64,000 bases of DNA from Acorus gramineus (taxonomy: Eukaryota; Streptophyta; Magnoliopsida; Acorales; Acoraceae). Location: assembly GCA_030737835.1 (NCBI GenBank), contig CM060852.1, positions 3,959,813 through 4,023,812 of the forward strand. Reading direction: 5' to 3'. The first letter of the stretch is position 1. Each line of letters starts with the position of its first letter. The translations under genes and the position numbers were made by a program. Under the pieces are notes generated by a model that ran no database searches, was not told where the DNA came from, and saw nothing but the letters and a program-made list of their open reading frames with translations. Of the stretch, positions 3,566 to 59,029 are shown one piece after another.

Positions 3566-6288
3566 CTATCTATTTATTTATTTATTTATATATAAATTTT
3601 ATTTTCTTGCCCAAGAAAATAATAAAATTAGATAAAGCAATGGCCTTTCCCCGTCTCTTTGGGTCTTTGGGGAAGGAGGGGGGAGAACTTTCTCACAATC
3701 CTTTATTTATAGGGAAAAAAAAGTTGACTAAATTACATATACTGCCACTGCGTCATTGATCGACTAGGTTTTATAAAACCAAAAATTACGAGGATGCCAC
3801 TGCACATAAAATATCTCCGGGGACCATATTTTCTTTATATTAATTCCGGCTGCACGCGTGAATAAATTAGTGGAGCATTATTGATTCTATAATCTACCTT
3901 CCGTTGATTGCGGGGTTTACCTGTAGAAAACCCACCGAAAAAACTCTTAATTTTTTTATTTATATTTTTTAATATAATTAGTTCTAAACAAACCTTTTTA
4001 TAATTTTTTTTTTTTTTTTTGGTCTTTGTTTGATTCTCTAACCTTCTTTACGGATAGGATGGGTGCTAGCCGACTTACTAAAGTTCGGTTCTCTTAAACA
4101 AGTTTTTTAAACTTTATTTTTTTTTAAATTTATATTCTGTTTTTTCATGGAATCAATATAATTTTTATGAAAAAAATTGATTGTAGATGTAGTAATGACA
4201 AAAATTTAAAAATCAATTCATAACTTTTGTTCATGTTTCCACCAAACATAAAACATAAATATTAATAGTGGTACAGTTCATACATGGACTGTGAGAAAAC
4301 AGTTGCAATTATTTTAATGGGCACGATGATCTCTGTTTAAGTTGCAAGAATTTCAAGTTAATCGTAACCATTTCTTCATATGAATTATTACAAATTTGTA
4401 GCTAGATGCACTTTTTCTCTTATCTTTTTTTTTTTTTTTTTTGAAAATTTTTGTTGAGTTGCCTCAAAAAAAAAAAAAAAAAAAGAGTAGTTGAGAATGT
4501 AGCCATATAGAGTAGCCAGAATCTTTGGCAGTTGGAGCCGTTTGCCATCTACAGTACTAGTGACATAGCCGGCAAAAGTATAACCTAAAATGTAGAGTTA
4601 GATTTATTTAAGTTACAGTAGAGAATGCGCTAAGGAGAACAAAACAAGGGAAGACTCACTGTTGAAAAGAATCACATGTAAATCCAAATGAACAGAGATA
4701 TTCACAGGAGCTGTTGAAAAGTCTCACGTATGTGGCCCACCCCTGCAAATTTGTTATCAAGTACTGTTCACAAGAAGAAAAAAAAACTCCCTGTATTACC
4801 GGCCGTGATAGAATGAGGTTACATCTATTATGTTATTTGATTAGAAAATGATACTGTGTTTCAAGTACACTATCATTCACAATCCACACTTTTTAAACCA
4901 CTCTCGCTTTTATTGAAATACATGTTATATAAAATAAAATATATACTGAAATACAATATCATTTTTTTTTCTATTTTGAAAAAATATTTTTTTTTACGTC
5001 ATATATTATCATAGAATCTTATACACCATGATAATGTAATATAATGGAGTTGCAGATCAGCCTGTAAAATGGATTAATTAAGTGTATCGGCGTTTATTTG
5101 ATTTAGTTTCCTTTTAACATTTGAAATACATATCATTTTGTGAAGAACATATAATAATGACTCTTATTTTATGTCTCTTGTGAAATTAAAAAAAATGAAT
5201 GTAGAGCTGATTAAAAAAAAAAAAAAACTCAATAATCTAATAAACAAGCAAAGGCTAAAGATGCAGATGTAGGACAGATTTGGAAAGAAATCATTGCAGA
5301 ATATTTGATTTCAAATCTGTTATCAAAATAAATTTTTATGAGATTTTATTTAGGAATTTAGGATTTTTAGGATCTTATGTTTTATTTTATTAAATTTTAA
5401 TTATTGTCATTGTAATTGTGTCTTTACTATTTTTAGTAAAGTCATAAAAAAAAAAAAAATTTTTATCAATAATATTTCGAATTTCCTCTATTTTGGGGCT
5501 TTCTTCCTTGTGGATTCAAGGATTCCTTGTGGATTCAAGGAGCTTATGAGATCTCAACGCTGGTTGGATCTTTTTATTAGTTTCACGCTGCGTTATGCAT
5601 GAAAACCATCTTCAAAAGATCTGAAAAAACACACATGTTCTTTCTCTTCCCATCAGTCTAAAGTGCAGACATTTTCAATCCCATTTTGTAAACCCATTAA
5701 TGGATTGCACATATAAAAGAGAGCACAAACTATGATATTAGGATATGAAAGAAAGAACAATACTAGTCATATAGAGTCAATAATCTAAATCTAGAGCCAG
5801 ACTCGGCACTATTATTTGGAATAGTTGTCTTTGAATGTCACCAAACCACACAATGAACATCAACCCAATCTGGATTACCACCTGCTCCATCTCCAGATTC
5901 ACACATCCGCACTTGAAGTTAAACAGTAATCCAGCTTTTTATTATTATTATTATTTTATAAACATGAACAACCCAATGTTGCTTTCTCACTGGCTAAACA
6001 ATATAATCAAAGCAAACTTGCTGTCAATCTTAAATCTTAATGTAATAAAGTAGCATCAATTTTTCCCCAAAAGGGACCATTCAGGTCCTAGGAAACAGAA
6101 ATGTTTTAAGAAGAGTATACGTTTGAATGGAAAACATGGCTTTAGCTTCAAAAACTACTTGGGGAAGATGGTATAAGTACAAGAATGCTCAATCATTGGG
6201 CGCTGTTTTTTTTTTTTTTTTTTGAAATAAGGTAGAACTTGCTACCAACACTTCTATTATAAAATATGTTAGTCATTGGATGCTGTTT
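3566..6288. other. AT-rich intergenic region
   Basis: This is the 5' flank of the kinase gene followed by AT-rich DNA with many A/T homopolymers (near 4010, 4430, 4470, 5215, 5450). The stretch 5270-5610 contains TTCCTTGTGGATTCAAGG twice in tandem, followed by sequence resembling the R/U5 part of an LTR. This is too weak to call. No coding sequence was recognised. Confidence 0.4.
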
Positions 6289-17834: not shown

Positions 17835-19770
17835 ATGGATGGCAAGCGGTGGTTGTCTGTGGTGGTCATCTTTTTCGTGCTGATTCTAGCGGGTCTATTC
17901 CTCCATGATGATCTCCCAGAAGCCGCTTCTTCATCCCTATCAATCCCAGCCTCTCTTTTTAGGTATGTGTGTATTGTTTTTTTGTCACTTAACAAAGCTA
18001 GAAACTATCGATTCAAAATCTATATATATTAGGTTATGAGTATACTCACCGGACTCTTTTGACTTTTTTTTTTGTTGTTGGTTGTTTGTCATGTGTAGGA
18101 GGGATCAACAACAGCAGACTACTACTTCCCTCCCAGCCTCGTTTGCATGGCTGATGAACCTCATCCAAGGAATCATAACAGGGGATGACGTTAATACTAA
18201 TTCAGATCCTCATACAAGGCTCGGAGGGGCTCAAAGCCCAAACCTCACAACGTGCCACTTGTCACTCTCCGATGCGGACCGTCCCGTCTACTGCTGCCCC
18301 CTAAAACCAGAGTCGGAGGAGCCCATCATCGACTTCGAGTTCCCGAGTCCCTCCGACGAGCCCATCAAGATCCGTCGACCCGCCCACCTCGTCGATGAAG
18401 CGTACATCGCCAAGTACACCGAGGCCGTCCACCGTATGCGCCGCCTCCCCCCGGACCACCCACACAACTTCATGCGCCAAGCGAACATACACTGCATCTA
18501 CTGCACGGGTGCATACAACCAGGCGAACTCGTCGGCCCTCCTAAAGATCCACCGCTCGTGGTTCTTCTTCCCCTGGCACCGCATCTTCATATACTTCCAT
18601 GAACGCATCCTCGCTAAACTCATCGGGGACGACACGTTCGCTCTTCCATTCTGGAACTGGGACTCCCCGGAAGGAATGGTGATTCCGGATATTTACATGA
18701 ACTCCTCATTGAACGATGTGGATCGGGACCTGAATCACTTGCCCCCCGCGGTCACCGATATAAACTTCCACAAACCAGTCGAGAGCGGGCTGAGTCCTGA
18801 GGCGCAGGTTTCATCGAACCTGGCGTTCATGTACAACCAGATGATCTCTGGCGCGAGGAAACCCGAGCTTTTCATGGGCTGCCCATCGCGTGCCGGTGTG
18901 GATGGCGCGTGTGATGGTCCGGGTACGATCGAGCTCGCGCCGCATAATGCCCTGCACTCTTGGGTAGGGAGCGCGGGCCAGCCCGAGAGGGAGGACCTTG
19001 GCGCGTTCTACTCCGCAGCGCGGGACCCAATCTTCTACGCCCACCACGCAAACATCGACCGCCTCTGGACCGTGTGGGAGGACCTCCACGGTGGGCGAGG
19101 CGTGGCAGGCGGAGAATTCCTGAACGACCCGGACTGGCTGGACTCGCACTTTTACTTCCACGACGAGAACGCGCGACTAGTCAGGGTGAGAGTCCGCGAC
19201 TGCCTTGACCTAAGCAAGCTTCGGTATCGCTATGAGGAGGTGAAGCATCCCTGGCTCGACGCAAAGCCTAAGCCCTCCATCCCCCCCTCCGCCGCCGCAC
19301 GAAGAAACATGTTATTGTGGCAATCGATCGACTTTGGTCCCACTGGGCGGACGCTTGACGCGAAGTTGCGGACGAGCGTTCGGAGGCCAAGGCCGCACAG
19401 GACCAAAAAGGAGATGGAGGAGGAGGAAGAGGTGCTCGTGGTGCACGGGATCGATATAAAAAAGGATATGGACGTGACATTTGATGTGTATGTGAACGCG
19501 GTAGATGAAGCGAGGACCCTCGAATACGGACCTAAAGCGAGGGAGTTTGCAGGGACATTCGTGAACGTGCGGCATGGGGTGAGGCTGGTGAGGAGGGAAG
19601 GGGACTCTGAAATGAAGATGAAGAGCACTCTCAAGTTGGGGATCTCAGAGCTGCTTGCGGATCTTGAGGCAGACGACGATGAGAGCATACTGGTGACAAT
19701 TGTTCCTAGAGGCGGCGGGACAGGTGTCAACACCACTGTGGATGGCATCCGCATCGAGTACATCCAGTGA
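17835..19770 (+). CDS. PPO: Polyphenol oxidase, first intact copy (599 aa, 2 exons)
   Basis: Exons 17835-17962 and 18099-19770 (GT-AG; join AG|G). Type 3 copper enzymes of this family oxidise o-diphenols to quinones. CuA site: HCIYCTGAY near residue 174 (its second Cys forms the thioether bridge in the family), then IHRSWFFFPWHR with His near 194 and 203. CuB site: PHNALH near 325-329 and FYAHHANIDRLW near 358. The DWL domain (DWLDSHFYF) and the tyrosine motif KLRYRYEEV follow. The C-terminal domain has VTFDVY where the family has KFDV and the sister gene has VKFDVY. The N-terminus (MDGKRWLSVVVIFFVLIL) is a hydrophobic signal or anchor, not a typical chloroplast transit peptide. A MULE occupies the promoter. 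The gene looks functional. Confidence 0.95.
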
Positions 19771-28039: not shown

Positions 28040-28417
28040 TATATGTAAATGTTAAAAAAAACATTTCCCAATGAACTTTTCCCGTGTAATATAAGCAAAA
28101 TTTCCTCAGTAAATATTGATATTTACCTAGGAAAATTTTTTACTGAAAAGTTCTTAAGTATTACCAACAGATTAATTGTTTTAGCCATGAATATTTTACT
28201 TGTAGCAACCAAATATTCTGTCGGTAAAAAGTCTTTACCAAGGATATGTAATTCGTTGGTGATTACTTACCAAGGAAGAGTAAGACTTTCTTGGAAAACA
28301 CTATGGGCGATGGGGTTGATAGGACGAAATTACCAACGAACTGCTTTGTCGGTAAAACAAAATTTTGATCATTGGCAAGGAAACAGTACCCTAGAAAAAC
28401 GCTTATTTCTTGTAGTG
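28040..28417. mobile_element. Truncated CACTA transposon end
   Basis: The right edge (28401-28417) read in reverse is CACTACAAGAAATAAGC, a CACTA superfamily terminus. Inside lie subterminal repeats of the TTACCAACGAA / GTCGGTAA type at about 28140-28360. No matching left CACTA terminus was found upstream, so this is a broken or solo end. It is a different family from the 53.9-kb element, whose subterminal repeat is TTTCGTAGC. Confidence 0.65.
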
Positions 28418-29814: not shown

Positions 29815-31710
29815 ATGGATGGCAAGCGGTGGTTGTCTGTGGTCGTGATCTTTGTCGTGCTGATTCTAGTGGGTTTATTCTTCCATGATGATCTCCCAGC
29901 CTCTCTTTTCAGGTATGTTTGTATTGTGTTTTGTCACTTAACAAAGCTAGAAACTATCAATTCAAAATCTATATATATTTGGTTAAGATGAGTATACTCA
30001 CCGGACTCTTTTGACTTTTTTTTTTTTTGTTGTTGGTTGTTTGTCATGTGTAGGAGGGATCAACAACAGCAGACTACCACTTCCCTCCCAGCCTCGTTTG
30101 CATGGCTGATGAACCTCATCCAAGGAATCATAACAGGGGATGACAATACAGCTGATTCAGAACCTCATAAAAGGCTCAGAGGGGCTCAAAGCCCAAACCT
30201 CACAACGTGCCACTTGTCACTCTCCGATGCGGACCGTCCCGTCTACTGCTGCCCCCTAAAACCAGAGTCGGAGGAGCCCATCATCGACTTCGAGTTCCCG
30301 AGTCCCTCCGACGAGCCCATCAAGATCCGTCGCCCCGCCCACCTCGTCGACGAAGCGTACATCGCAAAGTACACCGAGGCCGTCGACCGTATGCGCCGCC
30401 TCCCCCCGGATCACCCACACAACTTCATCCGCCAAGCGAACATGCACTGCATCTACTGCACGGGCGCATACAACCAGGCGAACTCGTCCGCCCTCCTAAA
30501 GATCCATCGCTCGTGGTTCTTCTTCCCCTGGCACCGCATCTTCATATACTTCCACGAACGCATCCTCGGCAAACTCATCGGGGACGATACGTTCGCTCTT
30601 CCATTCTGGAACTGGGACTCCCCGGAAGGAATGGTGATTCCGAACTTTTACATGAACTCATCATTGAACGATGTGGATCGAGACCTGGGTCACTTGCCCC
30701 CCATGGTCACCGATATAAACTTCGACTACGTCGAGAGCGGGCTCAGTCCAGAGGCGCAGGTCTCATCGAACCTGGCGTTCATGTACAACCAGATGGTCTC
30801 TGGCGCAAGGAAACCCGAGCTTTTCATAGGTTGCCCATCGCGTGCCGGTGAGGAGGGCGCCTGTGACGGTCCGGGTACGATCGAGCTCGCTCCGCATAAC
30901 GCCCTCCACACATGGGTCGGGAGCGCGGGCCAGCCCGAGCGGGAGGACCTTGGCGCGTTCTACTCGGCGGCGCGGGACCCAATCTTCTACGCCCACCACG
31001 CCAACATCGACCGCCTCTGGACCGTGTGGGAGGACCTCAACGGGGGGCGAGAAGTGGCAGGCGGAGAATTCCTGAACGACCCGGACTGGCTGGACTCGCA
31101 CTTTTACTTCCACGACGAGAACGCGCGACTTGTCAGGGTGAGAGTCCGCGACTGCCTTGACATGAGCAAGCTGCGGTATAGGTACGAGGAGGTGAAGCAT
31201 CCCTGGCTCAACGCGAAGCCTAAACCTACCAACCCCCCCTCGGCCGCTCGAAACACGTTGAGGCAGTCGATCGACTTTGGTCCCACTGGACGGACGCTTG
31301 ACGCGACGTTGCGGACTAGCGTGCGGAGGCCGAGGCCGCACAGGACCAAAAAGGAGATGGAGAAGGAGGAAGAGGTCCTCGTGGTGCACGGGATCGATAT
31401 AAAAAAGGATATGTACGTGAAGTTTGATGTGTACGTGAACGCGGTAGATGAAGCGAGGACCCTCGAATACGGACCTGAAGCGAGGGAGTTTGCAGGGACG
31501 TTTGTGAACGTGCGGCACGGGGTGAGGCTGGTGAGGAGGGAAGGGGACTCTCAGATGAAGACGAAGAGCACTCTCAAGCTGGGGATCTCGGAGCTCCTTG
31601 CGGATCTTGAGGCGGACGAAGATGAGAGCATATTGGTGACTATTGTTCCTAGAGGCGGGACCGGGGTTAACACCACTGTTGATGGCGTCCGCATCGAGTA
31701 CATGAAGTGA
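29815..31710 (+). CDS. PPO: Polyphenol oxidase, second intact copy (584 aa, 2 exons)
   Basis: Exons 29815-29912 and 30054-31710 (GT-AG, join AG|G). It is a close tandem paralogue of the gene at 17.8 kb with the same architecture: hydrophobic N-terminus (MDGKRWLSVVVIFVVLIL), CuA (HCIYCTGAY; IHRSWFFFPWHR), CuB (PHNALH; FYAHHANIDRLW), DWL domain (DWLDSHFYF), tyrosine motif (KLRYRYEEV) and C-terminal domain with canonical VKFDVY. It is shorter by 15 aa: 10 missing at the end of exon 1 (EAASSSLSIP in the sister) and small deletions in the linker after the CuB domain. All copper ligands are present. The promoter lacks the MULE, making this the likely reference for ancestral expression. Confidence 0.95.
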
Positions 31711-32727
31711 TCCAGTATAGTTGCATTTTTTTAAAAAAATATTTAAATATAAATCATTTAGATCTAGTATAGTTGCATTATGCACACTTCTTTGTGAGTT
31801 GGTTTTCAATACGATTCACATGTACTCTCATTATTATTATTATTTTTTTCTCCTGTATGAATAAAAAATAAATCATTTTTTATTTAATTATGTTTTTAGT
31901 TATTTTCATTTAAAAATATAATAATTTTTTTTATTTGATTATAAATAAGTAATGGATAAAAATGTGAATAATATGCAGTTAAATATTTATACAAGGTAAA
32001 AAATAATTTGATATGTGAATTTTTTAATTTATAAGAAGTGATGACATGTGATTTGATATATGTATCTTTTGAATGAAATAACACAAATTCAAAAGAGATC
32101 TAAAATGCCAATACCAATTTATTCCCACATATTTTGTTATAGCTGTACCTATTTATTCCTTGCAAAAATATGTTTTTAAGCTTATTCCCTCTATTCCATC
32201 ATATTCAAACCCCACTTATTTTTTTTGCAGCCACATTAATGTCACCATTGAAGTTCACTAATGCAGTACATGAAATTGTCTAATGAAGCATACAATCAAC
32301 TTGCTCTATTACATAAAACAAAACAAAAATATATGTATGAATGTAAACTATTTTTTTATTTATAAAATAATGTATTTAATTAACTAAGTATATACAAAAG
32401 AAAAAGAAAAAGGAAAAAAATAAGAAAAAGAAAATTAAAACATAGGCTGCACAAGGGACGGAGAAAAAAGACTGTGCCTAACATTTTTCATTGCTATTAA
32501 TGGGCTAAGGTGGGTCATTCTTCCCTTGCCCGATTTTCAGCTGTCCTATTCTGCAAGCGTAGTATAACAGCCAGAGGGGAATTAGCAAGTGATAACCAAC
32601 CTTATCTTCACAACATTCCTAGAGTTTATGAGAAGCACACCTTCCATCAAAAATATCTCAGTAGAAGTCAGGCTTAACATCGTAGATGCTCATCTGCATT
32701 TCCCCTGTATTGTGAAATAGTGTTAAA
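31711..32727. other. PPO-PPR intergenic region
   Basis: PPO 3' UTR, then AT-rich DNA without recognised elements. From about 32500 base composition becomes more balanced, probably the PPR gene's promoter and 5' UTR. Purine-rich A/G tract at 32395-32440. Confidence 0.4.
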
Positions 32728-34608
32728 ATGGCAGCTATTTTATTCACTCCAACAAACCAGTTCCCTTTGAAAATATCCTCAAAGATCGAAAGCCTCTCTC
32801 TTTTGGAAAGATGTTCAGCTATGGAGGAACTGAAGCAGATTCATGCCCAGATGATCAAAACAGGACTCATTCTGAAAACCATACCAGTCAGCAGGCTCTT
32901 GGCTTCCTGTGCAATCTCCAACTATGGAAGCCTGACATATGCCATCCGGCTGTTCAAGGCAATCCCACGGCCAAACACATTCATGTGGAACACTGTTATC
33001 CGAGCTCATTCGACGAGTAACAATCCTGAAGATGCTATACTTTTGTACTGCCAGATGCTCCATAGTTCAAAATCAGCTCCGTCTTACAACACTTACACCT
33101 TCCCTTTCTTGCTCAAGGCTTGCTCGGCTCGGTCTTCCCTGGAAGAAGCCAAGCAAATCCATGCCCACATTATAAAGAACGGACTCGATTCAGATGTCTA
33201 CACTGCCAATTCGCTCCTCCACGTCTATGCCAAGTCAGGTAACCTTGCCTCAGCACGCATGCTCTTTGATAGGATCTTGCATCGTGATATTGTCACTTGG
33301 AACTCCATGATCGATGGGTATGGAAAGACCGGAATTGTTGAAGCAGCAAGAGAGCTCTTTGATCAGATGCCAGCCAAGAACATAATATCATGGACCTCAA
33401 TTATCACTGCCTGTACTGAAGGTGGAATGTTCCAAGAAGCCTTAACCCTTTTCCAAGATATGTTGTCCGTGGGCATCAAACCAGATGGCGCTGCGCTCGT
33501 TGGTGTTATCTCTGCTTGTGCACAGCTTGGAGCATTGGACGAAGGGAAGTGGATTTCCACCTACATAGAAAGAAATGACGTTCAGGTGGACCCAATCCTC
33601 GGGTGCAGCCTTGTGGACATGTACTCCAAGTGTGGTGACGTGGAGGAGGCTCTCAAGATCTTCAAAAAGATGAATCGCAAAAGCATCACTGCTTGGACAG
33701 CCATGATCACTGGCCTTGCAATACATGGGCGGGGTCAAGAAGCACTTGATCTGTTTGCAGAGATGGAGAAAACAGGAGTAAAGCCCAACCAAGTGACCTT
33801 CACTGGACTTCTGACAGCATGCAGCCATGCAGGATTAGTGGATGAAGGGAAATCCCTATTCCAGCAAATGGAGAAAAAATATGAAGTAAGTCCTTCTGTT
33901 GAGCATTATGGGTGTATGGTTGATCTTCTTGGCAGGGCTGGAATGTTGCGGGATGCGGAAGAGCTGATAGAGAAGATGCCCATAAGGCCAAATGCTGCCA
34001 TTTGGGGAGCATTGCTCAATGCATGCCGAATCCATAAGAACTTTGATATGGGCAGGCGTGTAGGGAAGATTTTGATTGAATTGGACCCTGATCATGGAGG
34101 CAGATACATCCACTTGGCCAGTATTTTTGCGGCGGAGGGTCACTGGAATGAAGCAGTGAAGCTGAGGAAGATGATGAAAGACAGGGGAGTGTCAAAGCTT
34201 CCTGGCTGTAGTTCCACGGTTCTGAAAGGTGTTGTCCATAATTTCTTTGCGGGTGACGACTCTCATCCATTGACCAAAGAGATTTATCTTGAATGGGATC
34301 GCATCAATGAGAGGCTAAGAGAAGAAGGCTATGTACCACTGACTGATGATCTGCTTCTTGATCTGGAGGAGGACGAGAAAGAAAAAGCAATCCATCATCA
34401 TAGCGAGAAACTGGCCATTGCACTTGGTCTCATCAGCACTGATACAGGGACGACAATCCGAGTCGTCAAGAACCTCCGTGTGTGTGAGGATTGCCACTTG
34501 GTAACCAAGCTTATTAGCAGAGTCTACAGACGTGAAATTATAGTGCGTGATCGGACTCGATTCCACCATTTCAAGGATGGGAATTGTTCCTGCAGGGATT
34601 ATTGGTGA
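32728..34608 (+). CDS. PPR protein, PLS class with E and DYW domains (626 aa)
   Basis: Single-exon gene. DYW-type PPR proteins act in mitochondria or plastids, where the PPR tract binds RNA one base per repeat and the DYW domain deaminates C to U. The N-terminus (MAAILFTPTNQFPLKIS) is a plausible organelle transit peptide. PPR repeats fill about residues 35-450, with signatures such as DIVTWNSMIDGYGK, NIISWTSIITACTE, SITAWTAMITGLAI and VEHYGCMVDLLGRAG. The E region contains the PG box (LPGCSSTVLKGVVHNFFAGD). The DYW domain has the HSEKLA active-site motif (near residue 557), zinc ligands CEDC (near 585) and the C-terminal CSCRDYW. No missing catalytic residue was seen. The editing target cannot be read by eye. 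Confidence 0.95.
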   Translation: MAAILFTPTNQFPLKISSKIESLSLLERCSAMEELKQIHAQMIKTGLILKTIPVSRLLASCAISNYGSLTYAIRLFKAIPRPNTFMWNTVIRAHSTSNNPEDAILLYCQMLHSSKSAPSYNTYTFPFLLKACSARSSLEEAKQIHAHIIKNGLDSDVYTANSLLHVYAKSGNLASARMLFDRILHRDIVTWNSMIDGYGKTGIVEAARELFDQMPAKNIISWTSIITACTEGGMFQEALTLFQDMLSVGIKPDGAALVGVISACAQLGALDEGKWISTYIERNDVQVDPILGCSLVDMYSKCGDVEEALKIFKKMNRKSITAWTAMITGLAIHGRGQEALDLFAEMEKTGVKPNQVTFTGLLTACSHAGLVDEGKSLFQQMEKKYEVSPSVEHYGCMVDLLGRAGMLRDAEELIEKMPIRPNAAIWGALLNACRIHKNFDMGRRVGKILIELDPDHGGRYIHLASIFAAEGHWNEAVKLRKMMKDRGVSKLPGCSSTVLKGVVHNFFAGDDSHPLTKEIYLEWDRINERLREEGYVPLTDDLLLDLEEDEKEKAIHHHSEKLAIALGLISTDTGTTIRVVKNLRVCEDCHLVTKLISRVYRREIIVRDRTRFHHFKDGNCSCRDYW

Positions 34609-38927: not shown

Positions 38928-41186
38928 CTAACAACGGGGAAGATCCGCGGGTGGGGGAAGCACAGATTCATTGGGACTTTTGCCATTCTCTACCACAAAT
39001 GCCATCTTCAATCCCCACATAGTGTGCAACTCTAGATGACAGTGCATGAACCATACACCTAATCATCATCCACCAAATTCAATTTAATTTTCATTTTGTA
39101 AAAAAATAAATCAATAACAACATAAAAAAAAAATCTAGAATCTGACCTGGATTATCAGCCCTGAACCTGATGACAGTCCAGCCTCCCGTGGGAACACCAA
39201 CCGTATTTCTCTCTGGAGGATCTACCAAGTTGAATTTGGCGGGGTCCTTGGCCTTATCGAAATTACCAACACCAGTTCCAACCACAAAGAAGTTGTAGCC
39301 GTGGAGATGGAACGGGTGCGACTCCACGCTCAACAGGTTGGTGTCCTGTAGCACAAGTTCCACCGTCGAATTGAATGCCACCCTGCTCAACTTCGTCCCC
39401 ACATTGGTCCTCAGATTCGCCGTTAAGGGCACTCCCGTGTAGTTGAATGCCTTCGGAGGTCTATCTGGGAAGTCGGTCGTGAATACTCCCTTCATGTTGT
39501 AGTAGTGGGCTTGGAGGAGTCCGATCTTCGGCATCACGAAGCTTATGTTGTTCAGTGAAGCGGTGAGTTTGGTCCCGTTGAGGCACGTCGGGCATGCGTT
39601 CTGGCCAAGACCGATCGTGTAGAAGAGCTTCCTGTCGATCGTCAGTGGCACGTTCGCGGGGAATTTGGCTGTGTTTAGGCTTCTGAGCTTCTTGTTATAG
39701 CTCATGACAAGCTCTGTGTCATTACGCGCGGGAAGTTGGGGTGAGATGGGGATGACTGTATTAGGGACACCTTTGTATTGAAGGATGGCCATGGCTGTCT
39801 TGTTGTCCACAGCGATAGGCACGTCCATGAAGGCACGAGCGCCAATGAAGTAACGCCCTGGGCTGCGTTCAGCGGTCATTAGGACGTTTGTGGTCTGTCC
39901 TGGAGCGATGATCAGGGTGTTTGTGGTGAAGGGTTTCACGTAGACTGCGTCGATCTCCACCACGGTCATGTTGTGGCCGGCGATGGTGAAGAAGAGCTCA
40001 TCATCGAGGGCAGCATTGACGATCCTTAGGAGGTAGGTCTTTCCCGATTCAACCTCCAATGCATAAGTATCTGTCAGGGTAAATAAATAAACCATTTATC
40101 AAGAAAAAAAAGGTATTCTTACACTAGCTAGCATTTAGTACACTTGTATGATATACAAATCTCTTTTGAATCATATTTTCTACCAAGAGCATAATATACT
40201 CAAATTAGATTACAGTGAAATGCATGTTGGAATGGCTAAAACTTACGTTTCTCGGAACATGGGAAGAGAGGTCCTGGCTTGCCATTGATGGTGTGCGCAT
40301 CAGACATTGCTGGTGGTAAACCCAACTTGTTGCCCTGCTTGACTGCCTCTTCCACATCTCCATTCCACCATTCACCTATACATACACCAGTAGAAGAGAA
40401 ATATAATTACAAAAATATTAGCACAAGTTTTCACAGATTTATGCTTAGGAACTTTATGCGCACTTAAGACTAGATTGGCTTCCTGGTAAGGTTGAGGAAA
40501 TGGGAATGTCCCATCTTTAGGCTTGATTACGATCACCCCATGGACGGTGGCCCTCAACCACAGGATGTGTGCATGCCACCATAGGGTTCCTCTTTGACCT
40601 GTCACTGTAAAATTATATACATAGCTTTGCCCGCTTTGGATCGGGCACTGTGTTATGTATGCGGGTCCATCGGCCCAACCATTACGGAACTGCTTCAATC
40701 CATGCCTACATCATACTTCCTACATTACCCAATTGTAACAATATATATGTGTATGCATGCATGAAAATTAATGTGTGTGTATGTACAAGTACACTTAAGT
40801 GCGGATATTCTATAATAATTCTAGTGTGTTATATATCAATGTATTCATACCAGTGGATCGACATATTGTATTGCGCATAGTTGGTGACATTAATGATGAC
40901 ACTGTCTCCTTCTGTGACATAAATGGTCGGTCCTGGAAACATCCCATTTACAGTGACAATCGGTTTCGCATGGCACAACCGGCTCATGTTCTTCACAACC
41001 ACCTGAAAAAGAGGGAGTCTTACATGTCAATACCAGGAAGAACATACAGAATGAGAAATCCTAATGACTTGCATCAAACTGGTATTTCTTCAAAGCAGCT
41101 TCACTCGCAGGGGACAAAAGAGAGAGCGTAATAAAGCCAATAAATAGAACGATGGATCGCATGAGAAGACTGGTTTGTGGCACCAT
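38928..41186 (-). CDS. Laccase, first copy (563 aa, 6 exons)
   Basis: Plant multicopper oxidase, secreted to the cell wall, where the family oxidises monolignols or flavonoids. Exons: 41073-41186, 40851-41002, 40464-40705, 40247-40375, 39147-40070, 38928-39058. Phases agree throughout. Signal peptide about residues 1-30 ([24 protein letters not shown]). Copper motifs: HWHG (88-91), WWHAH (131-135), HPFHLHG (about 464-470) and HCHLELH (about 526-532). Stop follows LPRC. Intron 1 begins GC, not GT (GAT|GCAAGT), whereas the sister gene has GTCAGT at the same place. The exon 3 donor (TTAA|GTGCGC) is also weaker and changes a Gly to Ser. If intron 1 splices from the GC site the gene is intact. Confidence 0.92.
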
Positions 41187-47969: not shown

Positions 47970-50257
47970 CTAACATTTGGGAAGATCCGCAGGAGGGGGA
48001 ATCACAGATTCATTGGGACCTTTGCCATTCTCTACCACGAATGCCATCTTTAACCCCCACATCGTGTGTAGCTCTAGATGGCAGTGCATGAACCATACAC
48101 CTGATCATCCAATAAATACAATTTTTAGTTATTCATAATTTTATATATATAAAAAAAAATGATCAATATCATGCATGGATGGTATTGGTATCTGACCTGG
48201 ATTATCAGCCCTGAACCGGATGGCAGTCCAGCCTCCGGTGGGAACAGCTATCGTGTTCCTCTCTGGAGGATCGACCAAGTTGAATTTGGCGGGATCTTTG
48301 GTCTTATCAAAATTACCAACACCAGATCCAACCACGAAGAAGTTGAAGCCATGGAGATGGAACGGGTGCGATTCCACGCTCAACAGGTTGGTGTCCTGCA
48401 ACACCAGCTCCACCGTTGAATTGAATGCCACCCTGCTCAACCTCGTCCCCACATTGGTCCTCAGATTCGCCGTTAATGGCACCCCTGTGTAGTTGAACGC
48501 CTTCGGAGGTCTGTCTGGGAAGTCTGTAGTGAAAACTCCCTTAATTTTATAGTAGTGGGCCTGGAGGAGCCCAATCTTTGGCATCACAAAGCTTATGTTG
48601 TTCAGTGAAGCGGTGAGTTTGGTCCCGTTCAGGCATGTCGGGCACGCGTTCTGGCCTAGACCGATCGTGTAGAAGAGCTTCCTGTCGACCGTCAGTGGTA
48701 CGTTCGCGGGGAATTCGGCTGTGTTTAGGCTCCTGAGCTTCTTGTTGTAGCTCGTGACAAGCTCTGTGTCATTACTCGCAGGAAGTTTGGGTGTGATGGG
48801 GATGGCCGTATTGGGGACTCCTTTGTATTGAAGGATGGCCATGGCCGTCTTGTTGTCCACTGTGATGGGCGCGTCCATGAAGGCACGGGCGCCAATGAAG
48901 TAACGCCCCGGGCTGCGATCAGCGCTCACTAGGACGTTTGTTGTCTGTCCTGGGGTGATGATCAGGGTGTTTGTGGTGAAGGGTTTCACGTAAACTGCGT
49001 CGATCTCCACCACGGTCATGTTGTGGCCGGCGATGGTGAGGAAGAGCTCGTCATTGAGTGCAGCGTTGATGATTCTTAGGAGGTAGGTTTGTCCCGATTC
49101 AACCTCCAACGCATAAGTATCTGTTATGATGAAAAAATATATATATAAGAAATAGATTCAAAATTCCAAAATAAAAGGTGTGAATATTTTATTTTTACCT
49201 ATATACATTACACTAGTATGTATGATACAAATTAAATGCTTTGTTACATATTTTCTATCGTGGAAAGAGCAAATAATATAGTCAAATATAACTGCAGTGA
49301 TAGCATGTGGAAATGATTAATCTTCATACGTTTTTTGGAACATGGGAAGAGAGGTCCTGACTTTCCATTGATGGTGTGTGCATCGGACGTTGCTGGCGGC
49401 AATCCCAACTTGTTGCCCTTCTTCACTGCCTCTTCCACGTCTCCATTCCACCATTCACCTGTATACACACCAGTAGAAGAGAACAAGATTAATCAAAAAA
49501 ATTATCTTATATGAATTAAGAACACAAGTTTTCACACATTTTTCTTTAGGAACTTTGTGCCTACCTAAGACTAGTTTAGCTTCCTTGTATGGTTGAGGGA
49601 ATGGAAATGTCCCATTTTTAGGCACGATGACGATCGCCCCATAGACCGTGGCCCTCAACCATAGAATGTGTGCATGCCACCATAGCGTTCCTCTCTGGCC
49701 CGCCACAGTAAAATTATATGCGTAGCTTTGCCCGCTTTGGATCGGGCACTGTGTTATGTATGCCGGTCCATCAGCCCAACCATTACGGAACTGCTTCAAT
49801 CCATGCCTGCATCATACTTCCCATGTTATCCAATTGTAACAATATGTATATGCATGCATGAAAATTAACATTTATGTGTGTATTTACATGTATATAATCA
49901 TACCAGTGGATTGACATATTGTATTGCGCGTTGTTGGTTACATTAATAAAGACATTGTCTCCTTCTGTGACGTAGATTGTCGGTCCTGGAAACTTCCCAT
50001 TTACAGTGACAATGGGTTTCGCATGGCACAACCGGCTGACGTTTTTCAGAACCACCTGTAAAAGAGGGAGTCTTACATGTGAATGAATGCGAGGAAGAAC
50101 ATACAGAATGCATGCTGAATAAGAAATTCTAATGTTTAGTACTGACATCAAATTGATATATCTTCAAAGCAGCTTCACTCGCAGGGAAGAGAGAGAGCGC
50201 AATAAAGCCGATAAATAGAACAATGGATCGCATGAGAAGACTGGTTTGTAGCACCAT
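47970..50257 (-). CDS. Laccase, second copy (562 aa, 6 exons)
   Basis: Tandem paralogue of the laccase at 38.9 kb with the same exon structure: 50147-50257, 49904-50055, 49565-49806, 49330-49458, 48197-49120, 47970-48100. Exon lengths equal those of copy 1 except exon 1, one codon shorter. All introns are GT-AG; intron 1 begins GAT|GTCAGT. Signal peptide about residues 1-29, then HWHG, WWHAH, HPFHLHG and HCHLELH copper motifs. Stop follows LPKC. Many potential N-glycosylation sites (NVTNN, NMS, NFT, NNIS), as usual for wall laccases. No defect was seen. Substrate and tissue cannot be inferred; closeness to a pectinesterase suggests wall modification, but neighbourhood alone does not prove shared function. 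Confidence 0.94.
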
Positions 50258-51368: not shown

Positions 51369-54279
51369 TTGGGACCCGTTTGGATGGGGGAATAAATGAT
51401 GGAATTATAAGAAAAATAAAGGTAAAAAAACTGTTTGGGTGGGTGGTATAAAAGTAGAGGTGTCAAACGGGCGGGCCGGCCCGGCCCGGCCCGTGGCACG
51501 GCCCGTTAAGGGCCCGTGCCGGCACGGCACGGCACGGGCCGTGCCGTGGGCCGGCCCGTTTGGGTGGCGACGCGGGCTGGGCCTGACCCCCGGCCCGCGG
51601 GCCGTTTTTGGCACGGCCCGCTAGGCCCGCGGCACGTTTTGTGCCGTGGGCCCCACCCCACCAACGGCTAGTCCAACTAGCCGTTGGCGGGCCAACGGGC
51701 CGGGCCGGCCCGTTGGCACGGCCCGTTGGCCCGTCCGAACTCAAAATTCTTCACCTATAAATACCCCACCCCATCCACCCATTTCTTCATCAATTCAATC
51801 ACAAATCTCTCTACTCCTCCACTACTACACTCTCTTCTTCCTCTAAAATTTTCTAGTTTTGTGTTGGAATTCCAAGTGTTCAAGTGCTCTCTTTCTTTTC
51901 AAGTGAAAACTTCAATCAAATTGAAGTGGTGGTGAAAGCTCTCTCTGTCTCCAATCTCCATTTCTTCAAGGCTCTTTCCAAGGGAAGTTCTCTCCAAAGG
52001 GTGGGAAGGTTCAAGGCTCCAACTCTCCAAGCCTAAGGAGATTAGGGGAAGCTCTCTCTCTCTCTCTAGTCTCTAATCTCTACTAGTCTCACACTCTTCA
52101 TCTCTAGTCTCTACTCTCTACACATTTGAAATTTCAAGTTTTACAAAGTGTATTTCAAGTTTTAAATTCAAATTAATTCCATATTTCAAAACCAAAGTGT
52201 ATTTTAAATTTCAAATTTTAACTATTCAAATAGAAGAATTTTAAATTCAAATTTTAAATTTTAAATTCAAATTTCAAATTTGTACTTTTTAAATTTCAAA
52301 TGGCCAACCCAAACATAGAATATTCACACACTGATGATGAATTTGAAATATAGATAACCTACTACATGATTCTCCCCAAGACCAATCCCAAACCCCCCAT
52401 GAATCAGTTGGAGGTGATGTTGGTGCATCATCTAGTCACCCCCCAACTGGAAAACAAAAAAAACCCTCTAAAAGAAGTAGGAAGTCTGAAGTTTGGGAGC
52501 ACTACACAATACAGAATATTAAATACCAAGGTAGAATGGAAGATAGAGCTGTTTGTAAATATTGTAACAAAAATTTTAGTTGTGCAAGCGCGGGTGGTAC
52601 CGGACATCTCAAGAGACATGCTGAATCATGTCTGAAAAGGCATCAACAACAACTGAATCCCGGTACGCAGTCTCAGATTGGGAGTTTCGGTCAAACAGGT
52701 AGTACTGAAGGTACAATGTCTACATTCTCTTATAATCAATCTAGTATGAGAGAAGGTTTATCTGTATATATAGCATCTGATGAACAACCATTTACATTTG
52801 CTGAAAGTAAAAGATTTGAACGTTTTCAAAAAAGGTACGTTAATCCACAATATAGAGCTGTTTCTAGAAATACTATTAGATCAGATATAATTAGAGTTTA
52901 CAATGAAATGAAAAATCATTTAATTCAATCATTCATGAACATTCAAAAAATTTCATGCACATCTGATTTATGGTCCGGTAGGAATGATTTAGCCTATATT
53001 TGTGTTACTTCACATTATATTGATTCTCATTGGATGTTAAATAAAAGAATGTTAGCTTTTCGTCCACTTACATTTCCACACACCGGCACAGTAATTTATC
53101 AAGCAATAATGGATATTTTTAGAGAATATAATATAACTGAAAAAATTTTATCCATAACTTTTGATAATGCTAGTAATAATGTTAGTGCTATTTTAAAATT
53201 TAAATCTTCTTTGGGTTTACCTTATGATTTTGAATTTTATGATTGTAAATGTGTATGTCATATTATTAATTTAATTGTGCAAGATGGATTAACTCATATT
53301 GAAGAATCATTAGTAAATATTAGATTAGCATTAAAATTTATTACTTGTACACCTTCTAGAGTACAAGCATTTGGTGATTTTTGTGCGACACGCAATATTC
53401 CCCCTAGAAAATTTCCTCTTGATATGCATGTTCGTTGGAATTCTACATATATAATGTTGCAAAGTTGTGAGGGTTATGAAAATTTGATTACTGAATTTAA
53501 TGAAATGTTTAACAATCGTGTTGAAATTTCTCCTATTGATTGGCAAATTTCAAAAGTTTTTGTGCAATTTTTAAGTATTTTTTATGATGCTTCTATTGCT
53601 TGTTCAGGTGTTTATTATCCTACATCAAATCTTATACTTAGACAATTATTTAATATTTCTTGTGCATTTAAAGAATATAGAGATTATAGTATACTTCAAG
53701 AATCTATTTTCTTGATGGAACAAAAATTTAAAAAATATTTTGAAGATATTCCTATGCTTTTTTGTTTAGCTGCTGTAATGGATATTACTATTAAATTAGA
53801 TACTGTTAAAACTATAATTTCAAGAATAAGTGATAATGTTAGATTTCCAATGGTTATAAGTGGTGAAGATGTAGAATTTGCTTTAACTGACACTACAACA
53901 AATTAGATTATTAGCTACGAACTTTTAGCTGCGAAACTATATTTCGTAGCTAAAGGAGACTTTTACCTGCGACGAAAGGTATAACGTTTCCCTGCGAAAT
54001 CCTAATTTCGTAGCAAAAGATATAACTTAATAGTATTTCGTAGCAATAGATGTAACTTTTAGTTACACAATCATATTTCATAGCAAAAGCTATGACTTAA
54101 TCTAGACCATCCAATCATATAACATAAAATCTCAGCCGTTCATGGAACCTAACCCTAACCCTAGGAGACTCTCTTCACTCTTCCCTCGCCGTCAAAAAAC
54201 AAACACACACACACAAAAAAAAAACTCCTCTCCTCCTTATCTCCTCACTACACAACAGAAATCACACAACCTTGCCGAT

Positions 54280-54550
54280 CTTCAGCCCTCGCGGATCCTC
54301 GTCGACCCTTAGCCCTCGCCGATCCTCATCGACCCTCAGCCCTCGCCGATCCTCGTCGATCCTCACCGACCCTCGTCGACCCTTAGCCCTCGCCGATCCT
54401 CACCGACCTTCAGCTCTCGCTGATCCCCACCGACCCTCGCAGACCCTCAGACCTCGCCGACTCTCACCGATCCTCAGCCATCGCAGACCCTCAGACCTCG
54501 CCGACTCTCACCGATCCTCAGCCATCGCAGACCCTCGCCGACCACCGGCT
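54280..54550 (+). repeat. GC-rich minisatellite in the CACTA element
   Basis: Irregular repeats of TCGCCGATCCTC / GACCCTCAGCC units. They create a low-complexity open frame (Pro/Ser/Arg-rich, 54272-54601) that is probably not a real protein. Confidence 0.8.
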
Positions 54551-55272
54551 GACCGTCCATCAGACCATCACCTCCGTCCATTTGTTGTTGTGAATATGTG
54601 ATTTGATTGTTGTTGGGTATCTATTATTTTGTTAAGTTATTGATTTGGGATTCATAGATCTAGTTTTTGTATAAAAAAAATTTGTGATGAATGTTTGTTT
54701 AATTAATTAGAGTTTGCTGCACTGTTTATTAAATATTTTTTATGATCTTTTTATGGTCATACCCGAGCCTGACCCGGGCCCGGGCTCAACCATGCTTGTA
54801 TGATCTTTTTATGATTTTCTGATTGGTCTTGACAGGTTGATATCCATGCTTATATAGAGCTAACTATACTTAGATGCTTACCTTTGGCACCTGGTTACTG
54901 CTATTGAATTAGTTGTTTAGTTCAGCCAGTTATATTCAGGTAATTTGGAATCTTTATACCATGTATCTGCTTTTAGGACAATCTTTCTGATGTCTTGCTC
55001 TCAATTAATAAAAATAGGCTAAATAGGTGTAGATCATGTATACATTCGTTCTTTGTCTTTGAGTTTGCTTTTGTCTCCTTAGATGTAATTAGAAGGCATC
55101 ACCTACTCTCTACTTGAGTTGTTTGCTGATTGTACTTATAGACAAGCAAATTTTAATTAATTTTTATTTACACCATGTACTTCCAATTGATTCATTGGAT
55201 GAAGTATGTTTTGCGTAGTAAATCAGAGAGGCACTTGTCAAAATGTTATGTGTTTCTTCTTATTTTTGGCAG

Positions 55273-56005
55273 TGTTTTTTCAAGCGATCCTGGAATGGTT
55301 TCATGCACCTCTTCTCATTCAGGAAACAAGGATCAATCTGCAGTTTCTGAGGTTGTCTAAATAACATTAAGCCTTCCTTCTGATGTGCTGTAAGTACAAT
55401 AACTTATCTACATGGTGAATGGGACAATTTTTTTATTGACTGGCCCAAATCCTGTACTGCTGTTTTTTTTTACTATATATTTGTTTATTGTTTAAAGTGA
55501 TTTGAAAATTCTATTTCACTAATGAAATATTGCACCATCTTTAAGTCAAATAACTTGTGCTGCCACTACTTAGAAAATATGTTATAGCTATTTCCTCTTT
55601 GAGTGTGTTAATGATCTCATTAACTCTATAGATGTGTTAAATTTGGAATTACAGAAATCTCAAATGTCCAATTGCTCTATAGATCTCATTAACTCTATAG
55701 ATGTGTTAAATTTGGAATTACAGAAATCTCAAATGTCCAATTGCTCCTCATATAGGTTCTAGTCACCAATCACCATGGAATTTTATTCTTTTTCTTTATC
55801 TTTTTGCACTATGTAAGCTTCATCATATTCTATGACATAGATCCCACCACTCTCTCTCTATCTATCAAAAAGAAAAAACAAGTCCTATTTGTCATGTGTG
55901 CCTTTTCATTACAGTTTTCAATTAAGCCAGTACAGGTTTGCAACAGCTGCAATGCAAATGTTTTAGGATTTGATCATCATTGTCCTTCTTTTGAAAACTG
56001 TATAG
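55273..56005 (+). pseudogene. Captured fragment of a DHHC protein S-acyltransferase gene
   Basis: Two exon-like pieces with splice sites lie inside the CACTA element. At 55273-55351, TTTTTGGCAG precedes a frame reading FSSDPGMVSCTSSHSGN and ends TGAG|GTTGTC. At 55913-56005, TTCATTACAG precedes VCNSCNANVLGFDHHCPSF and ENCIG, ending ATAG|GTATGA. The second has the Asp-His-His-Cys core and cysteine spacing of palmitoyltransferase cysteine-rich domains. These enzymes are membrane-bound; no transmembrane exons are obvious here. Retained introns imply capture from genomic DNA rather than from mRNA. The donor gene is not in this window. Confidence 0.75.
55613..55749. repeat. 69-bp tandem duplication
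   Basis: The stretch beginning GATCTCATTAACTCTATAG occurs at 55613 and again at 55682 with essentially no differences, so the duplication is recent. It lies between the two captured exon pieces. Confidence 0.9.
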
Positions 56006-58409
56006 GTATGACCCCCCCCCCCCTCTATGTATTGTGATTGGCGAAAACCACCAGCTACACTTCTGTGGCTTCAGATAAAGCTATAGACTCTATAGATCAT
56101 GAGTTTCTCGTTCGAAGGTCAGAAGAATCACCTTATGTTCATGATTCTTATTATTGGATTTCTAGCTGTTGAAGCCACCTACACCATTTGCTCAACTTAT
56201 TGTGAGCAATAATTCGGTAAATATTCTGATCATACATCTTATATTCTTTATCAAGAAATATGAGCAACTATTGATAGGTTGAGTTAGGTTACAATTTTTT
56301 TTATCTTGTGATATAGTTGTTCTTAAAATGGGGTTGATGAAATTGATATTGGCTCAGTCAGAGAACTTGAACTTGGAGCAGTTAAACAAATTGATTGAGG
56401 GCACTGTGTGTATTCATAGCAATTGATGCCATTTAAGGATATTATAACAATTTGTAATTTATACAATTGATTTTTATGTTAAAACTTGAATTGGTTTTAT
56501 TATTATTGTTATAATTAAATATTTATTTAATTGTAATATAAAAGTTTTTATATGAATATGTGATCTTTTCCTGTGAATGGTTTTTTTTTTTATTATATTT
56601 ATACACTTTTAGCTGCGAAATAATGTCGTAGCAAAATGTTACTTTTTGCAATGAAAGTTAGTTTCGTCGCAAGAGGTAACCTTTAGCTACGAAATGATTT
56701 GCGTCGCAAAAGGTAATCGTTTGCGACGAAAATAAATTCTCGTACCAAAAGGTTATCTGATACCAGGCAGTTGCAACCAAAATAGCAACGAAGTTATTTC
56801 ATCGAGAAAAGCCCTTTGCTACGAAATTACAGTTTTTTGCTACGAAATAGTTCACAGCTAATGCTCATATTTCTTGTAGTGTGAAATGTATAAAAAATAT
56901 GAAAATAAATATGCAAATAGAACTAGAGCATCATCCTCCACTTCATCTATTAGTTTATTAGGCAAAGGTAAGAAAAAAGATTATTTCTTTGATTTTGTTT
57001 CACAAAGTTCACACACTTCACATGATTCTAGTAGTGGTAGTTCTAATCTTAATGAACTGTTTAAATATTTAGAAAATGATTGGAAATCCCTTTTAACTGA
57101 AAAGGAGATGGAAAATTTTGATCTCTTGCAATGGTGGAAAGCACATGAAGTGACATTTCCTGTGCTTTCTATAATGGCAAGAGATTTACTAACTCCTCCA
57201 GTGTCTACAGTGGCTTCAGAATCTTCTTTTAGTACAAGTGGGAGAATATTATCTGAGAGGAGGACCAGGTTGGCAGCAAGTTCACTGGAAGCTCTTATTT
57301 GTCTGAAGGATTGGAGTGATGCTGATGAAAGAAATCAAGAATTTGTAGATAGTCTTGAGGTGGATTTTACAAAATTCAACATAGATGATGATCAATGAAG
57401 ATTTCACATATAAATCTTCTCATTGTTGTATTTTTTTAATTTTTTGAAAGGTGAGTTGCAAGTGATTGATAGTTTTAATAGGTGCCAACCTAGTTGGGAT
57501 GTATTAAAAACTATAGTGATGCAATTATTACTCACTTTTTAATTTTTTGTATTTGTCAATGTATTTTTTAAGAATTGTATAATTTATTTTTATTCATCAA
57601 TGTACTATTTGTGTATTTTTTATTCATTTTATCATTTATTTAAATATTGTTCATGTACTCAAAGAAATTCAATATTCAATAAAATAAGTATTTGTATTCT
57701 TAATTCTTTTTAGTTTTCAATTTTTATAAATGACTTATGTATATTTTTTTAATTTTTTTAATTTAAAGGAACTAGTAAATTAAACATGGAATTAAATATT
57801 AAACTTAAAAAATTTTAAAAAAATGGACATTTTAATGGGCCGGCCCGTTGGCCCGTCAATGGGCCCGGCCCGTTGGCCCGCCGGGCTAGCACGGCACGGC
57901 ACGGTGACCCGCCGGGCTGGCACGGAGGGCCGGGCTGGGCCGCCCTCCTGCGGACCGTGCCGTGCCGGCACGGCACGGTTACATGAAACGGGCCGGGCCG
58001 GGCCGTTAGCCCGTTAGCCCGGTTGTTTAGCGGGCCGGGCCGGCACGGCACGGCCCGTTTGACACCTCTATATAAAAGAGTATAACTATGCAGAATTAAG
58101 TGAGAATAAGTTTGTATTTATATTCCAAGTTTCCTCATGAATTATGTTATTGTTCCACTAGTACAAGGGGATCCACCTATTAAATCATATGTCATCACTT
58201 CTTATAGATTAATAGAGCTCACATCTCAAATCAACTTTTTACACATTATTCACATTTTATTCTTTATTAATCAAACACTCCAACATTTATTATTACGTTT
58301 CCTAACGAAAAGAACTGATAACACAATCAAACAAAAAATTATTTATTTAATTAAATAAAGTTAACCATTCATAATCTTATAATATTTTATGTCATTATCC
58401 AAACGGATC

Positions 58410-59029
58410 TTGAAGTGGAATGATGTTCACGTAGAGTATCAACATTTTCTGATCAGTAGTCACACTCAGATTAGATTTAGACGTGAAAAGAATCGTTGGG
58501 AAAATCACATAGAAGCGCCGTATGACTTTAGGCATGCACATTAGATGCGGTCTACATATTATCATGCCGACGTGGCTTCATACACAATCCGAATTATTTT
58601 GCCAAGCCATTGAAGTTGAACATGGAGATCATGAAAACAACTTTATTCAATGCTTTTATTTATAATAAATTATTACACAATCAATTGATGTACTAAAAGA
58701 ATGTACAAACGAATTGGTCTTGTGCGCTGTTACACCCAGATTTATTTTTAGCCCCAATTCTAGACATAAATGGATCGATAAATTTCTATCGACGCATATA
58801 CTCATCTTAACAAGGCATATGGTTCCAAAGAATTTTTTTATATTTTCTATAAATACATCCATGCAATTCATTGTAGTATATGTTTTATTTTTTATAAAAA
58901 CATGTAACTCATTAGATAATGTATATTATTTTAAAAAAAAATTAAAACACATATAAACTTGAATTGAGATTGACAATGGGACTGAATGTAACATTATCTC
59001 CTGTTCTATCGGATACATTCAATAACTAA
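58410..59029. other. Intergenic DNA downstream of the intact pectinesterase
   Basis: Aligns in part with 42430-42780, next to the pectinesterase pseudogene (ATGTTGATGTAGAGTATGG / ATGTTCACGTAGAGTATCA, then TTTTAGGCATGCACA / TTTAGGCATGCACA), confirming the extent of the block duplication. No other feature. Confidence 0.55.

What the first reader, a model, noticed from the sequence alone, without database searches (positions are those of the whole stretch)
51372..58409. Transposon nest: captured gene in a CACTA, in a hAT, in a MITE
Each layer has its own diagnostic ends: TTG flanks for the outer MITE-like element, an 8-bp TSD TATAAAAG and perfect 18-bp TIRs for the hAT, and a 3-bp TSD TGA for the CACTA. 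The order of events is fixed: MITE first, then hAT, then CACTA. The CACTA brought part of a host gene with it, so one locus records at least four steps.
Basis: seen in the sequence. Interest (0 to 1): 0.75.

Follow-up and report, generated by a model that had tools for sequence, protein, structure and literature searches.

The report
Three transposons nested in one another
In a plant chromosome a small old transposon was split by a younger one, and that one by a third carrying a stolen piece of a host enzyme gene; it is a clean example of an ordinary kind of event in plant genomes.

Summary
The outer element (51372-58409, TTG on both sides) is a copy of a high-copy, ~430-bp MITE family. A 6,616-bp hAT (51455-58070; perfect 18-bp TIRs, 8-bp TSD TATAAAAG) splits it. 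A 2,991-bp CACTA (53891-56881; TSD TGA) sits in the hAT transposase frame. Eight of 8 fetched hAT copies match the joined CACTA flanks over 80 bases without a mismatch.

Larger sister CACTAs also carry stretches of a probable kinesin gene (donor on C2, ~8% diverged); this copy lost them by internal deletion. It is a Pack-CACTA-type element. hAT and CACTA are young (2-3 substitutions in ~1,840 bases to five of seven hAT copies; 6 in 1,702 to the closest full CACTA, interior only), the MITE older.

One correction: nesting proves hAT-after-MITE and CACTA-after-hAT, not that the CACTA arrived in situ; a loaded hAT could have jumped into the MITE. Nested elements and gene-carrying CACTAs are well known: a new member of a known kind.

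The parts
51369..51371 (.). TTG, left target-site copy of the outer MITE
   Evidence: TTG again at 58410-58412
51372..51454 (+). left part of the MITE (83 bp, includes one copy of the hAT TSD)
   Evidence: aligned with family copies
51447..51454 (.). 8-bp hAT TSD TATAAAAG, left copy
51455..51472 (+). hAT left TIR, 18 bp perfect
   Evidence: same terminus in other copies
51455..58070 (+). hAT element, 6,616 bp with the CACTA, 3,622 bp without it and one TGA
52300..52353 (+). start of the hAT transposase frame, closed after 17 codons by a frameshift; three of seven other copies read here are open
52347..53890 (+). hAT transposase frame, first part (zf-BED, hAT-like RNase-H)
53888..53890 (.). CACTA TSD TGA, left copy
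53891..56881 (+). CACTA element, 2,991 bp, without a transposase frame, carrying host-gene sequence
53891..54100 (+). CACTA left terminus and subterminal repeats (approximate end)
54817..56442 (+). segment shared with the S-acyltransferase locus at C5:6785886-6787845, exons and introns
55273..55351 (+). captured exon, reads VFSSDPGMVSCTSSHSGNKDQSAVSE (splice borders inferred from the sequence)
55613..55746 (+). 69-bp tandem duplication, absent from the three places that cover it (C1, C3, C5 donor)
55936..56005 (+). captured DHHC exon, reads VCNSCNANVLGFDHHCPSFENCIG (splice borders inferred from the sequence)
56438..56442 (+). junction of a 1,641-bp internal deletion relative to the C1 copy, GATAT microhomology; the missing piece matches the kinesin locus
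56600..56881 (+). CACTA right subterminal repeats and terminus (approximate start)
56882..56884 (.). CACTA TSD TGA, right copy
56885..57398 (+). hAT transposase frame, second part (Dimer_Tnp_hAT)
58053..58070 (-). hAT right TIR, 18 bp perfect
58071..58078 (.). 8-bp hAT TSD TATAAAAG, right copy
58071..58409 (+). right part of the MITE (first 8 bases are the second TSD copy)
58410..58412 (.). TTG, right target-site copy of the MITE

Best explanation
Three cut-and-paste DNA transposons inserted one inside another. (1) Shown: a 414-bp MITE of a high-copy family sits between TTG duplications. (2) Shown: a hAT of a recently amplified family lies in the MITE and duplicated TATAAAAG. (3) Shown: a CACTA without a transposase of its own lies in the hAT transposase frame and duplicated TGA; its flanks equal intact hAT copies. 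(4) Shown as sequence relation, direction and donors inferred: an ancestor of this CACTA took up about 1.9 kb of a DHHC S-acyltransferase locus and pieces of a probable kinesin locus, with introns, so by way of DNA and not of RNA. (5) Shown by comparison with sister copies, direction inferred: this copy lost the kinesin part by a deletion with GATAT at the junction, lost about 0.2 kb more near the DHHC exon, and gained a 69-bp tandem duplication. Inferred: the CACTA was moved by a transposase supplied in trans, and this hAT copy, frameshifted near its start as four of seven other copies are, was probably also moved in trans. No function for the host is proposed; the exons look like decaying passengers.
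For: Termini and TSDs. MITE family. hAT family: 73 matches listed, of which 13 cover codons 1-684/685 with no stop and 11 of those lie in open frames of 712-715 aa. Of six copies with both ends fetched, four have exact 8-bp TSDs (L002/L081, L004/L075, L005/L076, L008/L073), one (L006/L080) is shifted by a base at an altered TIR, one (L003/L074) lacks the right TIR. Pfam zf-BED, hAT-like_RNase-H, Dimer_Tnp_hAT and DHHC, all over cut-off. CACTA empty sites 8 of 8. CACTA sisters. S-acyltransferase locus: 123 mismatches in 1,600 ungapped positions to the window copy; neither CACTACAA nor TTGTAGTG in 14,001 bases around it; DHHC exon at 39.8 bits. Kinesin locus: 75 mismatches in 939 ungapped positions to the C1 copy; neither CACTA word in 6,301 bases. 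Deletion junction. Youth, substitutions only: hAT 5' part 2-3 in about 1,840 positions for five of seven copies, 7 and 20 in the other two; CACTA interior 6 in 1,702 (C1), 18 in 1,742 (C3), 4 in 1,070 (C2).
Against: The MITE's TSD is TTG and its right TIR is one base shorter than the family's, so TTG could be partly chance; no empty site for the MITE was found. hAT copies also differ by 28-66 gapped positions over that 5' part, and their 3' parts by 2-18 substitutions in about 690-790 positions; the CACTA's outer parts are only 89-96% identical to C1, C3 and C2. No Transposase_21 match lies within 33 kb of 35 other places with CACTA-family sequence, so the helper is not identified. Donors are best matches in one assembly without full gene models. 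Of four frames of the kinesin locus scanned, two match Pfam Kinesin, both under the curated cut-off (27.1 and 16.6 against 29.3), and two match nothing of it; the rest of the kinesin reading rests on motifs recalled.
Confidence: 0.94

Rival explanations
1. The CACTA entered the hAT somewhere else, and the loaded 6.6-kb hAT then jumped into the MITE as one unit.
For: Nesting alone does not exclude it; hAT and CACTA are both young.
Against: None of 35 other places with CACTA-family sequence listed lies within 39 kb of any of the 72 other transposase matches (both lists are capped). Four places where matches break or resume near the same codons were fetched and hold no CACTA terminus word. A second jump is an extra step.
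Confidence: 0.1
2. The outer inverted repeats are chance, and the hAT simply landed in unique DNA.
For: The TSD is only 3 bp, TTG rather than TTA/TAA, and the TIRs are imperfect.
Against: The right 331 bp matches 39 other scored places at 77-85%, and many copies of about 430 bp share both ends.
Confidence: 0.02
3. The DHHC segment is a piece of a resident host gene interrupted by transposons, not cargo of the CACTA.
For: Introns and splice sites are retained.
Against: The same segment lies between CACTA ends at C1 and C3, and in part (without the DHHC exon) in the C2 copy, with other flanks; the hAT flanks close perfectly without it.
Confidence: 0.01

Closest known systems
Pack-CACTA / Pack-TYPE elements (PMC8903248; passages seen)
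   Different: This copy has kept only one of two cargo genes; donors named here by DNA similarity only
Tgm-Express1 of soybean (PMC1947982; abstract and passages seen)
   Same: CACTA element with exonic and intronic pieces of unrelated host genes
   Different: Five genes and a flower-colour mutation there; here the insertion hits another transposon
Plant hAT families with 8-bp TSD, such as Hatvine of grapevine (PMC2528002; passages seen)
   Same: 8-bp TSD, TIR of similar length, intact copies beside defective ones
   Different: Sequence relation to Hatvine not tested
Tourist-like MITEs of PIF/Harbinger (PMC2836001; passages seen)
   Same: Short, high copy, 3-bp TSD
   Different: TSD here is TTG; other copies show GTG, GTA, TAC and TAT besides TTA; the likeness of the TIR is recalled, not tested

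Membership tests
hAT superfamily | 8-bp TSD | tested here: met
hAT superfamily | short TIRs shared with other copies | tested here: met
hAT superfamily | transposase with BED finger and hAT C-terminal dimerisation domain | tested here: met
CACTA superfamily | termini beginning CACTA and ending TAGTG | tested here: met
CACTA superfamily | 3-bp TSD | tested here: met
CACTA superfamily | subterminal repeats | tested here: met
CACTA superfamily | mobilised by a Transposase_21 protein | tested here: inconclusive
   one search lists 95 matches in the genome; one search finds none within 33 kb of 35 CACTA-family places
Pack-CACTA | host-gene exons between CACTA termini, no own transposase | tested here: met
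MITE | short, non-coding, TIRs, high copy number | tested here: met
Tourist-like (PIF/Harbinger) | 3-bp TSD of the TTA/TAA kind | tested here: inconclusive
   identical 3-mers in 6 of 19 copies, 2 of those 6 TTA; the window copy is TTG
Tourist-like (PIF/Harbinger) | autonomous PIF/Harbinger element with the same TIRs | not tested

The most novel reading that the evidence does not exclude
Both inner families are still moving in this plant, and the S-acyltransferase exons, in sense orientation inside a hAT transposase unit, are spliced into chimeric transcripts as in Tgm-Express1, so that sister CACTAs with S-acyltransferase plus kinesin cassettes act as a mobile source of exons.
Probability: 0.12. 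Interest if true: 0.45.

Novelty: new member of a known kind. Interest (0 to 1): 0.24.

Why it matters
It is a tidy record of about seven events in relative order, and it points to a hAT family with many intact, nearly identical copies that may still be active and to a two-gene Pack-CACTA family whose probable donors can be named. As a kind of thing it is ordinary for plant genomes.

Tried and rejected
Rejected: that the S-acyltransferase donor is missing from the assembly. Searches then showed that C5:6785886-6787845 matches only the captured part and has no CACTA ends, so it is the probable donor. The wrong note stands in the notebook.

Rejected: that the kinesin capture is clearly older. 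BLAST identities of the C1 copy (86-89% against 89%) hinted so, but without gaps both are about 8% diverged (151 of 1,871 and 75 of 939). The C3 copy gives 144 of 1,795 and 89 of 935 (9.5%), so a small difference in age is not excluded.

Led nowhere: an empty site for the MITE; a transposase near CACTA-family places; papers with CACTA, captured, kinesin and transposon (3 papers hold the terms, 1 listed, on another subject; listing and start of abstract seen) and with palmitoyltransferase (21 papers hold 3 of 4 terms, the 8 listed do not hold palmitoyltransferase; listing seen). Searches were listings too; of PMC8978399 passages were seen. The species was not identified.

Full report
Setting. 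The window is C6:3959813-4023812 of a 398.6-Mb genome in 137 contigs. Its gene content (polyphenol oxidases, multicopper oxidases, a DYW-type PPR protein) points to a land plant; the species was not identified.

Check of the observation. Reading and scripts place TTG / element 51372-58409 / TTG; TATAAAAG / 51455-58070 / TATAAAAG with perfect 18-bp TIRs; TGA / 53891-56881 / TGA with CACTACAACAAAT and ATTTCTTGTAGTG ends. Only one place in the window has perfect 18-bp inverted repeats within 12 kb flanked by identical 8-mers.

Outer layer. The right 331 bp matches 39 other places at 77-85% (a lower bound, since 40 of 3,000 candidates were scored). Alignment of 29 of these with the joined window flanks shows a family of about 430 bp with GGGYCYGTTTGGATAG-type ends. 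Ten copies were dropped for an end with more than 4 of 18 mismatches; of the other 19, 6 have identical 3-mers outside both ends against 1.06 expected, while a 1-bp tolerance removes the excess, 7 against 6.33. The window's TTG fits a 3-bp TSD but not the TTA/TAA of Tourist-like elements (mPing in PMC2836001, passages seen); GTG, GTA, TAC and TAT also occur. The class MITE is safe, the superfamily likely but not settled.

Middle layer. The hAT frame carries zf-BED, hAT-like RNase-H and Dimer_Tnp_hAT domains. One search lists 73 matches in the genome: 13 cover codons 1-684/685 without a stop, 11 of them in open frames of 712-715 aa. Of six copies with both ends fetched, four have exact 8-bp TSDs, one is shifted at an altered TIR, one lacks the right TIR. 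The window copy's frame closes after 17 codons. Of the seven other copies read there, four (L002, L003, L005, L007) share that frameshift and have a second difference, and three (L004, L006, L008) are open. In the 5' part, substitutions are 2-3 in about 1,840 positions for five of the seven (L002, L003, L005, L006, L007), 7 for L008 and 20 for L004, with 28-66 gapped positions besides; nine 3' parts show 2-18 in about 690-790. Amplification was recent and, for the frameshifted copies, probably in trans (inference).

Inner layer. Without the CACTA and one TGA the transposase frame is continuous, and eight of eight fetched hAT copies match the 80 bases across the junction exactly. That is the paralogous empty site. 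For the hAT, 11 of 29 MITE copies run in the window's orientation (counted by eye) and align straight across its target: one has TATAAAAG, three differ at one base, the rest at two to four.

Cargo. No transposase frame was seen in the CACTA. From 54817 to 56442 it matches C5:6785886-6787845, exons and introns. That C5 locus has neither CACTA terminus word in 14,001 bases, and its DHHC frame scores 39.8 bits against 29.6 for the window frame (cut-off 28.7). The window exon reads DHHCPSFENC, the C5 exon DHHCPAFGNC. Sister elements at C1 (4,793 bp, TSD TTA) and C3 (4,512 bp, TSD AAT) run on beyond the window copy's junction into sequence whose best match outside CACTAs is C2:14734862-14738844. 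I read that as a kinesin gene: of four of its frames scanned, two match Pfam Kinesin, both below the cut-off (27.1 and 16.6 against 29.3), and two do not; frames reading GTIFAYGVTSSGKTHTM and GTFVEGIKEEVVLSP are kinesin-like by recall. The C1 copy differs from the S-acyltransferase locus by 151 of 1,871 positions and from the kinesin locus by 75 of 939, about 8% each, so the two captures may be of one age; C3 gives 8.0% and 9.5%. Relative to C1 the window copy has a 1,641-bp deletion with GATAT at the junction, lacks about 0.2 kb more before the DHHC exon that the donor also has, and has a 69-bp tandem duplication.

Order and age. MITE relatives are 77-85% identical, hAT and CACTA relatives far closer. 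The CACTA's interior (54600-56440) differs by 6 of 1,702 from C1, 18 of 1,742 from C3 and 4 of 1,070 from C2; its outer parts are only 89-96% identical, which I did not explain. Nesting and ages agree. No absolute dates are claimed. Nesting does not exclude a CACTA-loaded hAT jumping into the MITE, though none of 35 other CACTA-family places listed lies within 39 kb of the 72 other transposase matches listed.

How it works. Insertion by hAT and CACTA transposases with staggered cuts of 8 and 3 bp is established knowledge. Capture in Pack-CACTAs has been proposed to follow from tandem insertions and aberrant excision (PMC8903248 and PMC13317346, passages seen); nothing here tests that. The deletion with microhomology fits ordinary repair after a break (inference).

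Known or new. Pack-CACTAs with DNA from several loci, intron-bearing cargo (Tgm-Express1; grapevine elements) and nested elements (mentioned) are in print. This is a new member of a known kind. Two searches for kinesin or palmitoyltransferase in this context listed nothing on this family; that is no proof of absence.

Noticed in passing
window 18040-19770 and 29992-31710 (+): Two closely similar polyphenol oxidase (tyrosinase) frames of 576 and 572 aa, apparently a local duplication.
   Followed up: partly
window 39091-40095 and 48141-49157 (-): Two closely similar multicopper oxidase (laccase-like, by recall) frames, apparently a second local duplication.
   Followed up: partly
window 32716-34608 (+): A single 630-aa frame of a PPR protein with E, E+ and DYW deaminase motifs.
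   Followed up: no
window 28406-28417: A lone CACTA-type right end, TTTCTTGTAGTG; its other end was not sought beyond the exact word search.
   Followed up: no
window 58721-58998: Another dispersed repeat just outside the nest, 39 further scored places at 83-85%.
   Followed up: no
L002, L003, L005, L007 (hAT copies): Very similar hAT copies with a frameshifted transposase start, next to many intact copies: a case for movement in trans.
   Followed up: partly
L072 (C2:14733600-14739900): The probable kinesin donor has a tandem duplication of about 340 bp covering part of the captured stretch, and 2.7 kb that the CACTA copies lack.
   Followed up: no
C1 and C3 CACTA copies (L014, L017, L022; L011, L018, L030): Sister CACTAs hold a stretch of roughly 0.4 kb (C1 element 3465-3831) inside the kinesin part that the C2 donor lacks; origin unknown.
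   Followed up: no
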